In this document: one piece after another, positions 52,688-56,644 of the stretch
Position numbering within the stretch: position 1 is the stretch's first letter
How the letters are laid out: each line of letters starts with the position of its first letter
DNA from: Candidatus Poribacteria bacterium
GTDB lineage: Bacteria; Poribacteria; WGA-4E; GCA-2687025
DNA length: 64,000 nucleotides
Reading direction: 5' to 3'
Assembly (NCBI GenBank): GCA_028818695.1
Contig: JAPPNK010000011.1
Coordinates: 1 to 64,000, forward strand
Translations under genes and position numbers: made by a program
Notes under the pieces: generated by a model
Databases searched by the model: none
What the model was told of the DNA's origin: nothing
Seen by the model: the letters and a program-made list of their open reading frames with translations, nothing else

Positions 52688-53725
52688 CTATCGTAGAGAC
52701 GGATCCAGCGCCGCCTTGACGCCCCGCTGTCTGCGCGCGTATTGAACCGCCTCGTTCGCTTTGCTCAAAGAGAACCGGCGGGGCTTCAAATCGGACAGAT
52801 CGATCTCGCCGTCAACGATCATCTGCCGCGCTTCTTCCAGGCTTCGCCGCGTGAACGCCCATGAAGCGCGTAGCGAATGCCCCTGAAAATGCAGCCGCTC
52901 CAGGTCGATCGCAAGCGTCCGCCCCGCCGGCGCCAGCCCAAAAAAGTTGACGGAGCCGCCCCGCCCCGCCGCGCCCAACGCCTGCTGGACGGCATGTTCC
53001 GCTTCCGTCGCGCAGACGACAGAGTCGGCGCCGCCGTCTGTACGGGCGCGCAGCTCGGCGTAACCTTCCGCGGTCGGCTCCAGCGCCAATTCAGCGCCCC
53101 GCGCCAGCGCCTTTTCGCGCCGTTCCTTCACCGGTTCCACAACAAAAACGCGCGCCCCCGATTTCGCCGCCAGCTGCGTGAACAACAGCCCGATCGGACC
53201 CGCGCCCAGAATCGCTGCCGTTTCCCCGAAAGGCGCGTCATGAACTGCGTTCAAAACGCATCCAAGCGGCTCAACGAACATCAACCGCTCAGGCGGCGTC
53301 TCCTCTGGGACGCGCAGCAGCCCCCCCCGCTCCACAAGCGGCTTCGGCGCCGTCATATACTCGGCAAAACCGCCGTCGATATCATGCCCGATGCCGTAGA
53401 GACGCGCGCAGTATCGGTCCTGTCCGCGCCTGCATTCGCGGCATTCTCGGCATGAGATCATCGGGTTGACGCTGACGCGGTCGCCGACATGCGCATGCGT
53501 TGAGCGCGATTCAACGACGACAGCGGCGATCTCATGTCCAAGCGCGACGGGCGGCGAGTAGTCCGAGGCGCCGCCGTCGATGGCGAGCAGGTCGGACGCG
53601 CACACGCCGCACAGGTCGATTTTAAGCCGCGCCTCCCCTTCTGAAAGCGGCGGCAGATCTCTCTCTTCCAATACAAGGGGTCGGTTCGCTTCATTAAAAA
53701 GAACGGTCTGGTACCGCTGCGTCAT
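52688..53725 (-). CDS. Zinc-dependent alcohol/polyol dehydrogenase (MDR family)
   Basis: 345 residues. NAD(P)-dependent oxidation of an alcohol or polyol. Catalytic zinc Cys in CGVCASDLLAIDGG with GHEIAAVVVE, structural zinc Cys cluster CRECRECRRGQDRYC near 90-105, and Rossmann AAILGAGPIGLLFTQLAAKSGA near 165, followed by acidic E for the adenosine ribose (VFVVEPVKER), which favours NAD. Resembles sorbitol/threonine dehydrogenase subfamilies. It overlaps the upstream nitroreductase by ATGA as the last gene of the Sec-peroxiredoxin operon. Substrate unknown. Confidence 0.88.
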   Translation of the reverse strand: MTQRYQTVLFNEANRPLVLEERDLPPLSEGEARLKIDLCGVCASDLLAIDGGASDYSPPVALGHEIAAVVVESRSTHAHVGDRVSVNPMISCRECRECRRGQDRYCARLYGIGHDIDGGFAEYMTAPKPLVERGGLLRVPEETPPERLMFVEPLGCVLNAVHDAPFGETAAILGAGPIGLLFTQLAAKSGARVFVVEPVKERREKALARGAELALEPTAEGYAELRARTDGGADSVVCATEAEHAVQQALGAAGRGGSVNFFGLAPAGRTLAIDLERLHFQGHSLRASWAFTRRSLEEARQMIVDGEIDLSDLKPRRFSLSKANEAVQYARRQRGVKAALDPSLR

Positions 53726-54498
53726 GGTTTTTTCTGTCCGTGTCGGTTGAAGTGCGCAATCCGCTCTGCAGGCAAGCGGGTTGAGAGAATTGGTTCCGTC
53801 TCTTTTTTAAGGTACCCCATCCGCAGGATCAGAATCGGCTCGCAGGTTTCGGGCGCTTCCAAAAGCAGGCGCGTTTCGTCCCGCCCTTTTGCCGTTTCAA
53901 GCGCCGCGACCGCGAATTGCGCGCCGATGCCGCGCTCCTCCGCTTCCAGCAGCATGTTCTGAAACATGGCGCCGATGGAAAGCAGCGTCCACACATCGCC
54001 GTTGGCGCCGGGCGAAACGCGGTCGAGACGCCTGAAGACGACGCACAGAAGCGGAGCCTCTGCGACGGCGCGTTTGGCGGCGTTGCCGGGACCGCTTCCG
54101 GCGCCCAGTTTCGCCAGCGCGGCCGCGGCGCCGGGCCGTTTCAAAAGCAGCGGCGCAACCAGACGCGCGAACCCCGAATCCGGCAGCTGATCGCCCAGAT
54201 AAACGCCATCTCCCTCCTCCTGCCACTCCTCTTGCGTGACGCGCGTCCAGCTCGCCGCCGCCTCCAAGAACGGCCGCCGCTTCATCTGCGCGGACATATG
54301 CCGGCGCGTCAGCTCCCCCAGCGCCGCTTTTTGCGCCGGCTCCGTTATGAACAGCAGCTCCCACGGCTGTATGTTGAACGGCGACGGCGCCCAGCGCGCC
54401 GCTTCGATGAGCGCGTCTATGTCGCCGCGGCGCACAGGCTCGCTCCGAAAGTCGCGCCGCTGGCTGCGCCGTTGCCGTATCAGGTCAAGGGGCGGCAT
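53722..54498 (-). CDS. Nitroreductase-family flavoprotein, second copy
   Basis: 258 residues. LDLIRQRRSQRRDF, ARWAPSPFNIQPWELLFI (FMN site) and RGIGAQFAVAALE are typical; the region between about 70 and 165 is longer than in small nitroreductases (EEWQEEGDGVYLGDQLP and an Ala-rich stretch). The ATG at 54498 overlaps the MptG-like gene by 14 bases; a longer reading reaches 54546 but overlaps by 62. Distinct from the gene at 27728. In the operon it could reduce a flavin, quinone or pterin, but nothing proves this. Confidence 0.82.
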   Translation of the reverse strand: MPPLDLIRQRRSQRRDFRSEPVRRGDIDALIEAARWAPSPFNIQPWELLFITEPAQKAALGELTRRHMSAQMKRRPFLEAAASWTRVTQEEWQEEGDGVYLGDQLPDSGFARLVAPLLLKRPGAAAALAKLGAGSGPGNAAKRAVAEAPLLCVVFRRLDRVSPGANGDVWTLLSIGAMFQNMLLEAEERGIGAQFAVAALETAKGRDETRLLLEAPETCEPILILRMGYLKKETEPILSTRLPAERIAHFNRHGQKKP

Positions 54499-55474
54499 CG
54501 CGCTCTGCGACCTCAATCGTTGCGCCGCGGTTGTTTGCGCGGACAATGCGCGTGAATCCAGAGTTGCCAGCCTTTTTGAGAAACCGATCAGCCGTAAGCT
54601 GAAGCTCTTCGAGCCGCTCGCCGAAGACTGCCATCGTCGGTCCCCAGCTGCTCATGGCGACGCCGTATGCCCCTTCCTTGCGCAGACGCTCCGCCGTCTC
54701 CCGCACAATCGGCTCCTGAATCTCCCACTCCACTTTTTTCCAGCCCGCCGTTCCCATCGCGTCCAGCGCCGCCGCCGCGGTCGGCATATCGTTTTCCGCC
54801 AGCGCGGGCAGCAAACTCATCATCAACAGGTGCGAGATGCGTTCAGCGGCGCGCGGCGGCATGGGGCATTTGGAACGGAAAAGCCGTTTCTCCTCCTCGC
54901 CGGAGACTTGCCGCGCGCGCGGCGAAATGAGCAGCATTTTCCAGTCAGGGAAGTTGCGCCTCAACAGCAGCGGACCGGGACCGACGCTCTCTGCCGCAGC
55001 AGACGGCAGAAAGTCTGCCTTTTGAGACGGCCAGCGATGCCCCCCGTCCACAAGAAACCCGCCCTTTTCAAAAGCGTACAGCCCGATCCCGGACGCGCCG
55101 CCCCGCCCCGACAGCCTCGCAGCCTCTTTAGCCGAAAGCGAAACCTCGTAGAGAGCGGCAAGCGCGTGGATAACGGAAAGAGCCGCCTGCGTCCCTGAAC
55201 CCAAGCCGACGTGGGCGGGTATCGTCTCTTCATACCGCAAATGAACGCCGCCGACCTTCCACAGCGCGCGCAACCGCTTCGCCAGCCGCTCCACGCGCTC
55301 CTGATGAACGCCTGCGCCGACCGCTTCAACGCGCTCCGCTTTGCGCGCTTCTAACACAAAGCTTGGCTTTTCAAGCGTCAGCCCGATGCTCCCATCGATA
55401 CGTCCAAGCCGACCCGTCAGATCAATCAGTCCAAAATGCAGGCGCGAAGGCGTTTCGATGCGGACCGTTTTCAC
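54485..55474 (-). CDS. Beta-ribofuranosylaminobenzene 5'-phosphate synthase-like protein (MptG/RFAP family, GHMP fold)
   Basis: 329 residues. RIETPSRLHFGLIDLTGRLG, RIDGSIGLTLEKP, HVGLGSGTQAALSVIHALAAL, GRGGASGIGLYAFEKGGFLV and MSSWGPTMAVFGE follow archaeal MptG closely. That enzyme joins PRPP and p-hydroxybenzoate/aminobenzoate in the first step of methanopterin synthesis; bacterial members occur in C1-metabolising bacteria and Planctomycetes. The start is GTG, four bases after the stop of the Sec-peroxiredoxin gene; the ATG-initiated frame would run 47 residues through that gene. No other methanopterin gene is in the window, so the role may differ. Confidence 0.82.
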   Translation of the reverse strand: MKTVRIETPSRLHFGLIDLTGRLGRIDGSIGLTLEKPSFVLEARKAERVEAVGAGVHQERVERLAKRLRALWKVGGVHLRYEETIPAHVGLGSGTQAALSVIHALAALYEVSLSAKEAARLSGRGGASGIGLYAFEKGGFLVDGGHRWPSQKADFLPSAAAESVGPGPLLLRRNFPDWKMLLISPRARQVSGEEEKRLFRSKCPMPPRAAERISHLLMMSLLPALAENDMPTAAAALDAMGTAGWKKVEWEIQEPIVRETAERLRKEGAYGVAMSSWGPTMAVFGERLEELQLTADRFLKKAGNSGFTRIVRANNRGATIEVAERDAAP

Positions 55475-55478
55475 CGGC

Positions 55479-56072
55479 TCATCGGCTTTTGAGTTCCGCC
55501 CAGACAGACGCGGCGCGGTTTTTTGGCGAAACGGACATCGGATCGCCCAGCAGCGACAGCGCCTGCTCCAATACCTTGTCGGCGGAGGGGCGGTCAGCCT
55601 TGTCGGCGCCGACATATTTCCACGCGACGACGCCGGCGCTGTCTAGCACAAAGACAGCCGGCTTTGCAATGTTCGCCGCAGCGTTCAAAACGTCATACGC
55701 CTTGATCGTCTCTCGACTGACGTCGCTCAACAGCGGAAAGGTTAGGTTATTCCGCTCTTTCATCTGCTTGGCGGTCGCTGTCGGATCAACGCTGATCGCC
55801 AGCAGCCCGATCTCGTTCGCTTCAAAGACATCAATCTTTTCCTGCAGCTCCACGAGCTGCTCATTGCAAAACGGTCAGAACAGGCCGCGGTAAAACACCA
55901 GTACGCATGGATTTCCGCGGTAATCTTTCAATTTAACGATCTCATTTTCCGTGTTCGGCAGCTCAAAAAGCGGCGCGCTTTCGCCGACATCCAAAGCGTC
56001 TGCGTTAAAAGCAAGCGGCAAAATCAGCGCGGCGGAGATCAATGCCGCGGCAAACGAAGCGGAAGGTTTCAT
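55479..56072 (-). CDS. Selenocysteine-containing peroxiredoxin-like protein 2 (UxxC)
   Basis: 197 residues if TGA at 55875-55877 is read as selenocysteine (residue 66). A signal peptide (MKPSASFAAALISAALILPL) leads a thioredoxin-fold AhpC/TSA domain: VGESAPLFELPNTENEIVKL, then FYRGLF-U-PFCNEQLVELQE. Homologues have Cys at the TGA position in FYRG.WCPFC..QL. The frame runs on unbroken (GLLAISVDPT, FPLLSDVS, KPAVFVLDSAGVVAWKYVG). A hairpin follows TGA at the SECIS distance. The product is predicted periplasmic and peroxide- or thiol-reactive. It overlaps paralogue 1 by ATGA; AAAGGA 9 bases before the ATG. Confidence 0.83.
55845..55859 (-). promoter_or_regulatory. Bacterial SECIS-like hairpin in Sec-peroxiredoxin gene 2
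   Basis: mRNA CAGCUC-GUG-GAGCUG: six base pairs with a G-starting loop, its stem beginning 16 bases and its loop 22 bases after the UGA. This falls in the published window for bacterial SECIS elements (small apical loop with an early G about 16-37 bases downstream). The same stem is in gene 1. Confidence 0.6.
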
Positions 56073-56644
56073 GGCGTTCGTCCTTTCGGCGTTGGTTGAA
56101 GCGAGCGTACCTGCTCTAGTATTGCGTTCACGGAGGGGCGGTCTGCCTTGTTATCGCCGACATATTTCCACGCGACGACGCCCGACGAGTCGATGACGAA
56201 GACGGCGGGCTTGGCAATCTGCCCGCTTTCAACGCCGTATGCGCGGATGGCTTCGCGCGTCGGGTCGCTCAGCACATTGAATTCAAGGCTGTTTTCGTTT
56301 GCCATCGCCTGCGCGTTTTCCAAATTGTCGGCGCTCAGCGCAACCAGACGCGCGCCGAGACGCTGAAACCGATTCAAGTTCTGTTGCAGCTCTACGAGCT
56401 GCTCGCTGCAATTCGGTCACCATAAGGCGCGGTAGAAAACCAGAACGGCGGGCGCCCCCTCTGCGCTGTTGAGCGACCAGTCCCCGCCGGAGCCGTTCAG
56501 GGCGAACTGCGGCGCTTTTTGTCCCACCTCGTTCCCGACGCTGATCTGCGGCTCTGGCGTTTCGGCGGCCGGTTTGGATGAGCAGGCTGCGAAGATCATC
56601 GACAGCGCGAGAGCGGAACATGCGGGCAGCGTCCAACGGCGCAT
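56069..56644 (-). CDS. Selenocysteine-containing peroxiredoxin-like lipoprotein 1 (UxxC)
   Basis: 191 residues if TGA at 56417-56419 is read as selenocysteine (residue 76). Lipoprotein signal (LALSMIFAAC-SSKP), a short Pro/Glu linker, then an AhpC/TSA domain: VGQKAPQFALNGSGGDWSL, FYRALW-U-PNCSEQLVELQ, LVALSADNLENAQAMA, FNVLSDPTREAIRAYGV, KPAVFVIDSSGVVAWKYVG. TGA occupies the reactive Cys position of FYR..WC..C. GGAG at 6-7 bases sets the start. Likely anchored to a membrane in the periplasm, reducing peroxide or a disulfide. First gene of a five-gene operon. Confidence 0.83.
56387..56401 (-). promoter_or_regulatory. Bacterial SECIS-like hairpin in Sec-peroxiredoxin gene 1
   Basis: mRNA CAGCUC-GUA-GAGCUG forms six base pairs with a G-starting loop 22 bases after the UGA; an alternative outer pairing UUGCAGC/GCUGCAA encloses it. 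Same stem and offset as in gene 2. Confidence 0.62.

What the first reader, a model, noticed from the sequence alone, without database searches (positions are those of the whole stretch)
55479..56644. Two tandem genes with in-frame TGA at a peroxiredoxin redox cysteine: selenoprotein pair
In both genes a single TGA splits an otherwise continuous AhpC/TSA-like frame at exactly the place where homologues have Cys (FYRG-x-W-C-P-x-C-x-x-Q-L). They read FYRGLF-TGA-PFC and FYRALW-TGA-PNC. The flanking sequence on both sides stays conserved between the two copies, which pseudogenes would not do. One is a lipoprotein, the other a soluble secreted form, so both seem periplasmic. Sec-containing UxxC peroxiredoxins are known in selenoprotein-rich bacteria; a tandem exported pair of this kind is, as far as I know, unusual.
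Basis: partly seen in the sequence, partly recalled or inferred. Interest (0 to 1): 0.88.

Follow-up and report, generated by a model that had tools for sequence, protein, structure and literature searches.

The report
Tandem exported selenocysteine redox genes, Poribacteria
Two neighbouring genes in a Poribacteria-group genome use the UGA "stop" codon to insert selenocysteine into the active site of exported, peroxiredoxin-shaped redox proteins; the protein type has been known since 2005, but its multiplication into tandem copies across this group was not found in the papers searched.

Summary
Confirmed. Two minus-strand genes (A 56069-56644, lipoprotein; B 55479-56072, signal peptide) overlap by ATGA. 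Each has one in-frame TGA at the first position of a UxxC motif. The genome encodes tRNA-Sec, SelA, SelB and a SelD that itself carries a Sec TGA. Homologues in about 55 related genomes and several phyla carry TGA at the same column; the few exceptions have Cys, notably in a relative (G003) with no detectable selA. After each TGA lies a bacterial SECIS hairpin inside the codons for QLVELQ/QLGELQ. Its stem covaries through synonymous double changes, is broken in Cys homologues, and is absent after the genes' ordinary terminal TGAs. Correction: the Sec is not the peroxidatic Cys. It replaces the Thr of the Prx TxxC motif, and the catalytic Arg is replaced, usually by Pro, so these are Prx-like UxxC thiol:disulfide oxidoreductases, not canonical peroxiredoxins. 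Tandem copies are not rare here: 17 of 58 searched genomes have adjacent UxxC genes, and the A-B pair heads a five-gene cassette conserved in three genomes. New members of a known kind; no paper on Poribacteria selenoproteins was found. Substrate and reductant are unknown.

The parts
56069..56644 (-). Gene A: Sec-containing Prx-like lipoprotein (UxxC = UPNC); lipobox FAAC; GGAG Shine-Dalgarno-like motif just upstream of the ATG at 56644
   Evidence: start and lipobox read from sequence
56417..56419 (-). Sec UGA codon of gene A
   Evidence: same column U or C in all homologues
56386..56402 (-). bSECIS hairpin of gene A: GCAGCUC-GUA-GAGCUGC, loop 21 nt after the UGA
55479..56072 (-). Gene B: Sec-containing Prx-like protein with cleavable-type signal peptide (UxxC = UPFC)
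55875..55877 (-). Sec UGA codon of gene B
55844..55860 (-). bSECIS hairpin of gene B: GCAGCUC-GUG-GAGCUGC, loop 21 nt after the UGA
56069..56072 (-). ATGA overlap: terminal (ordinary) TGA of gene A and start ATG of gene B
54485..55471 (-). GHMP-kinase-fold gene, beta-RFAP synthase family, 7 nt after gene B; same position in G004 and G005
53722..54498 (-). Nitroreductase-family gene of the conserved cassette
52688..53725 (-). Zinc-type alcohol dehydrogenase (MDR) gene of the conserved cassette

Best explanation
Genes A and B are true selenoprotein genes. UGA at the first position of a UxxC motif is read as selenocysteine by the genome's SelA/SelB/SelC/SelD system, directed by a bSECIS hairpin whose loop lies 21 nt downstream, inside the codons for QLVELQ. 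The products are exported, one anchored as a lipoprotein and one soluble. They have an AhpE/Bcp-type peroxiredoxin fold in which the Prx catalytic residues Thr and Arg have been replaced by Sec and (mostly) Pro. They therefore most likely act as thioredoxin-like thiol-disulfide reductases, perhaps also on hydroperoxides: the Sec selenolate attacks the substrate and the Cys three residues later resolves it as a selenenyl-sulfide. Reduction by a membrane donor such as the DsbD-like protein is possible. Shown computationally: Sec coding, SECIS, predicted fold, motif and conservation. Inferred: export, chemistry, substrate and reductant. The confidence given is for the Sec-coding part; for the thiol-disulfide role it is about 0.6.
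For: tRNA-Sec 74.7 bits, confirmed by ARAGORN with anticodon TCA. selA, selB and selD all over their curated cut-offs. selD has its own TGA at the catalytic site, ECAGUASK. Homologues: 87 of 90 distinct sequences have TGA at this column and 3 have Cys; U/C and the second Cys are invariant in a 45-row alignment. bSECIS: 95% of cells paired against 13-45% when slid, 0/500 shuffles; pair 21-31 is G-C 23, A-U 20, G-U 3, never broken. Over 87 sequences the Gln third base and Leu first base are A-T 50, G-C 31, G-T 6, with no mismatch, and these changes are synonymous. The hairpin meets the published bSECIS limits (loop 3-9 nt, stem 4-16 bp, G in the first two loop positions, 16-37 nt from UGA, MFE -7.5 or lower; PMC13188914). 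Cys homologues have lost it (57% paired). The terminal TGAs of the same two genes have no such hairpin. G003, without selA over cut-off, has Cys in all three homologues, two of them nested among Sec forms in the tree. UGA also ends 15 of 37 window ORFs. Purifying selection downstream of the TGA. Fold: pLDDT 90, Bcp4/AhpE Z 26-27. Motif shift TxxC to UxxC; catalytic Arg absent in all 42 rows with a residue there, Pro in 36. A DsbD-type transmembrane protein is in the genome.
Against: No peptide or selenium-labelling data. A hairpin of this energy follows about 2% of all TGAs in the window by chance, and its folding z-score alone is weak; the case rests on covariation and conservation. Four relatives (G009, G033, G045, G053) carry TGA-containing homologues but no selA over cut-off, presumably because the assemblies are incomplete. 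Only three Cys homologues were available for the SECIS control. The enzymatic role is inferred from motif and fold; export is judged by eye from signal sequences.
Confidence: 0.95

Rival explanations
1. The proteins are selenocysteine-containing but work as true peroxidases in the Prx manner: C69 (aligned with the peroxidatic Cys) attacks peroxide and the neighbouring Sec acts as a resolving residue.
For: Fold closest to the peroxidases AhpE and Bcp; C69 aligns with the peroxidatic Cys and is invariant.
Against: The Thr and Arg that activate the peroxide in Prx are missing in all aligned rows. In UxxC/CxxC enzymes the N-terminal residue is normally the attacking one (general knowledge). PMC1088965 describes the motif as thioredoxin-like.
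Confidence: 0.25
2. Pseudogenes, sequencing error or a natural truncation: the TGA is a plain stop.
For: None beyond the presence of a TGA.
Against: Same column in two paralogues and in dozens of genomes; covarying SECIS; dN/dS about 0.1 downstream; full Sec machinery.
Confidence: 0.01
3. UGA is recoded genome-wide (for example as Trp) rather than as Sec.
For: In-frame TGA within conserved frames.
Against: TGA is the commonest ordinary stop in the window (15 of 37 ORFs) and ends both genes. Homologues have Cys, never Trp, at the column. tRNA-Sec is present.
Confidence: 0.01

Closest known systems
Prx-like thiol:disulfide oxidoreductase, UxxC (PF00578); 'Prx-like protein' of the Sargasso Sea and 'Prx-like 1' of GOS (PMC1088965, PMC2398784, PMC13188914)
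   Same: PF00578 domain, UxxC in place of TxxU/TxxC, bSECIS directly after UGA, both Sec and Cys versions exist
   Different: Here exported, tandem and overlapping, in a Poribacteria-group genome, and heading a conserved five-gene cassette; phylum-wide multi-copy use was not found described in the held papers
Canonical peroxiredoxins (AhpE, Bcp/PrxQ; Sec form PrxU, TxxU)
   Same: Fold (Z 26-27 to Bcp4/AhpE) and the peroxidatic Cys position
   Different: Thr of TxxC is Sec, catalytic Arg absent; Sec is three residues upstream of where Sec-containing Prx (TxxU) carries it
SelL-related redox proteins (NF040769); eukaryotic SelL (a Prx-like selenoprotein)
   Same: Best NCBIfam hit of both proteins
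   Different: Bits 67.7 and 70.6 against a cut-off of 120
ResA/TlpA/DsbE periplasmic thioredoxins
   Same: CxxC-type active site, Pro at the cis-Pro-like position, exported; weak hits
   Different: Sequence and predicted fold are closer to Prx; far below family cut-offs

Membership tests
Bacterial selenoprotein | In-frame UGA within a conserved reading frame at a Cys/Sec column | tested here: met
   U or C only, flanks conserved
[quoted passage not shown]
   21 nt, loop GUG/GUA, 7 bp, -11.6 and -13.1 kcal/mol; covariation
Bacterial selenoprotein | SelA, SelB, SelD and tRNA-Sec in the genome | tested here: met
Bacterial selenoprotein | Sec physically present in the protein | not testable with these tools
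   needs mass spectrometry or selenium labelling
Prx-like UxxC thiol:disulfide oxidoreductase | PF00578 domain above cut-off | tested here: met
   118.9 and 112.8 bits against cut-off 26
Prx-like UxxC thiol:disulfide oxidoreductase | UxxC motif instead of TxxC/TxxU | tested here: met
Prx-like UxxC thiol:disulfide oxidoreductase | Thiol:disulfide oxidoreductase activity | not testable with these tools
   no assay possible
Canonical peroxiredoxin | Thr/Ser three residues before the peroxidatic Cys | tested here: not met
   Sec or Cys in 45/45 rows
Canonical peroxiredoxin | Catalytic Arg | tested here: not met
   aligned column is Pro in 36 of 42, Arg in none
Canonical peroxiredoxin | Prx fold and peroxidatic Cys position | tested here: met
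SelL-related redox protein (NF040769) | Score over curated cut-off 120 | tested here: not met
   67.7 and 70.6 bits
AhpC-TSA_2 (PF13911) | Score over gathering cut-off 27 | tested here: not met
   22.8 bits for gene A, no match listed for gene B

The most novel reading that the evidence does not exclude
The lipoprotein and the soluble protein form a dedicated two-member selenium-based redox relay outside the cytoplasmic membrane. It would be functionally tied to the beta-RFAP-synthase/nitroreductase/dehydrogenase cassette it heads, and it would be one branch of a lineage-wide expansion in which Poribacteria run much of their extracytoplasmic thiol chemistry on tandem selenoproteins.
Probability: 0.15. 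Interest if true: 0.55.

Novelty: new member of a known kind. Interest (0 to 1): 0.38.

Why it matters
It places a clear, multi-copy set of selenoproteins in Poribacteria, a phylum for which the full-text library holds no paper that also mentions selenoproteins, and it may bear on the reported frequency of SelA/SelB in sponge-symbiont bins (PMC5649159). Ordinary stop-codon annotation would split or miss these genes. The hairpin inside QLVELQ is also a neat case of an RNA signal constraining protein sequence: the loop rule G[G/U]N goes with Val or Gly at that residue in 85 of 87 Sec forms.

Tried and rejected
First neighbour Pfam scan failed on a wrong frame and was redone. Folding energy alone as SECIS proof: rejected as weak (z -0.5 and -1.1; about 2% of all TGAs in the window reach the same hairpin energy). 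Pseudogene, sequencing error and genome-wide UGA recoding: rejected. Canonical Prx label: rejected on the Thr and Arg columns. Sec-versus-Cys label clustering on the tree is uninformative with three Cys rows. Origin of the A-B duplication: gene B forms a supported clade with its counterparts in G003, G004 and G005, but gene A's placement is unresolved. No literature on Poribacteria selenoproteins found; PMC5649159 mentions only SelA and SelB. The whale-shark and cold-seep papers returned were not relevant.

Full report
Observation. Gene B, 55479-56072, is FYRGLF-U-PFC. Gene A, 56069-56644, is FYRALW-U-PNC. The genes overlap by ATGA. Gene A begins with a lipoprotein signal (..MIFAAC-SS), gene B with an ordinary signal peptide (..FNADA-LDV); both readings are by eye. 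Both genes end in an ordinary TGA. They are 52% identical over 147 residues across the TGA, and both match PF00578 strongly.

Sec machinery. The genome (35 contigs, 3.57 Mb, 91% complete) holds tRNA-Sec (74.7 bits, anticodon TCA), selA (552 bits), selB (316 bits) and selD (348 bits). selD itself carries one TGA, at the catalytic ECAGUASK. UGA is otherwise the commonest stop among 37 predicted ORFs of the window, so it is not recoded genome-wide.

Organism. The window is therefore from the Poribacteria group.

Homologues. A scan of 84,980 species genomes returned 46 loci from Poribacteria, Acidobacteriota, Chloroflexota, Nitrospinota, Tectomicrobia, Myxococcota, Hydrogenedentota, Planctomycetota and others. 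A search of 58 genomes (own plus relatives) gave matches in 55, mostly three to six per genome. All but four of the matches listed contain at least one TGA. In 90 distinct sequences with a readable motif the column is TGA in 87 and Cys in 3. In a 45-row alignment the Sec/Cys, the second Cys, and QL are invariant. The Cys forms come from G003 (L021 and its two other loci), which has no selA over cut-off (only 61% complete), and two of them nest inside the Sec clade of gene B. This fits reversion to Cys after loss of the Sec trait.

SECIS. A 7-bp hairpin with a three-base loop, GCAGCUC-GUR-GAGCUGC, starts 14 nt after the UGA, with its loop at 21 nt. It satisfies the published bSECIS constraints (PMC13188914). 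It lies in the codons for E-QLVELQ. In 46 diverse sequences 95% of cells pair, no shuffle of 500 does as well, and slid versions reach 13-45%. The decisive pair, Gln third base with Leu first base, is A-U 50, G-C 31, G-U 6 and never broken in 87 sequences, all by synonymous change. Nine of the 46 lose the innermost pair; several of these read CUG-GUC-GAG, which widens the loop to GGUCG and keeps G first. The loop codon is GUN or GGN in 85 of 87 Sec forms, so the residue is Val or Gly; the Cys forms have Glu or Ala there and the stem is broken (57% paired). The terminal TGAs of the same genes have no such hairpin. Caveats: loci were found partly through QLVELQ, so the residues (not the codon choices) are selected there; the loci from the search were not chosen that way and give the same pattern. 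Folding energy alone is not significant, and about 2% of all TGAs in the window have an equally stable hairpin.

Selection. Downstream of the TGA, G004 and G005 differ with dN/dS of about 0.14 (gene B) and 0.09 (gene A). Pseudogenes are excluded.

What the protein is. Alignment with solved Bcp/PrxQ proteins puts the Sec at the Ser/Thr of the TxxC motif and the retained Cys at the peroxidatic Cys. The catalytic Arg column is Pro in 36 of 42 rows and Arg in none. The AlphaFold2 model (pLDDT 90) is closest to Bcp4 and AhpE, Z 26-27, rmsd 1.3-1.4. So the fold is Prx, but the active site is thioredoxin-like UxxC plus Pro. This is the family listed as Prx-like thiol:disulfide oxidoreductase (UxxC, PF00578) in PMC13188914, reported from the Sargasso Sea (PMC1088965) and frequent in GOS (PMC2398784). 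NCBIfam's nearest model is SelL-related, below its cut-off.

Context. In the window, G004 and G005 the order A, B, beta-RFAP-synthase-family kinase, nitroreductase, MDR dehydrogenase is conserved (the G004 genes identified by their similar sequences). Adjacent UxxC genes occur in at least 17 of 58 genomes searched (counted from the list). A Dehalococcoidia contig and a Poribacteria contig carry three in a row (L030, L046). GOS reads had shown neighbouring selenoprotein genes of other combinations (PMC2398784). A DsbD-type membrane protein is a candidate electron donor; this link is inference.

Verdict. The selenoprotein pair is real as far as sequence can show. It is a new member of a known kind, of interest for its lineage-wide tandem expansion and its absence from the selenoprotein literature that could be searched.

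Noticed in passing
54485-55471: Beta-ribofuranosylaminobenzene 5'-phosphate synthase family gene (TIGR00144 275.7 bits against cut-off 113.5), a methanopterin-pathway enzyme type, conserved right behind the Sec pair in three genomes. Its link to the redox genes is unexplained.
   Followed up: partly
L019 (G000:C35:179319-180242): The genome's SelD is itself a selenoprotein (ECAGUASK).
   Followed up: yes
L030:5357-7011: Three consecutive UxxC Prx-like Sec genes within 1.7 kb in a Dehalococcoidia (Chloroflexota) contig.
   Followed up: partly
L065:5065-5070: Two consecutive in-frame TGA codons (WUUFC) in a Latescibacterota homologue: double Sec, or an assembly artefact.
   Followed up: no
L105:1276-5676: Three tandem paralogues starting MKTTQ.. 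(two nearly identical at the N-terminus) close to a third Sec Prx-like gene of the same genome.
   Followed up: no
L117 (G000:C7): DsbD-like protein, 792-aa open frame, with what look like repeated N-terminal domains before the membrane domain.
   Followed up: no
56386-56402 and 55844-55860: The codon after QL is GUN or GGN in 85 of 87 Sec homologues, as the SECIS loop rule demands, so the protein alternates almost only between Val and Gly there.
   Followed up: yes
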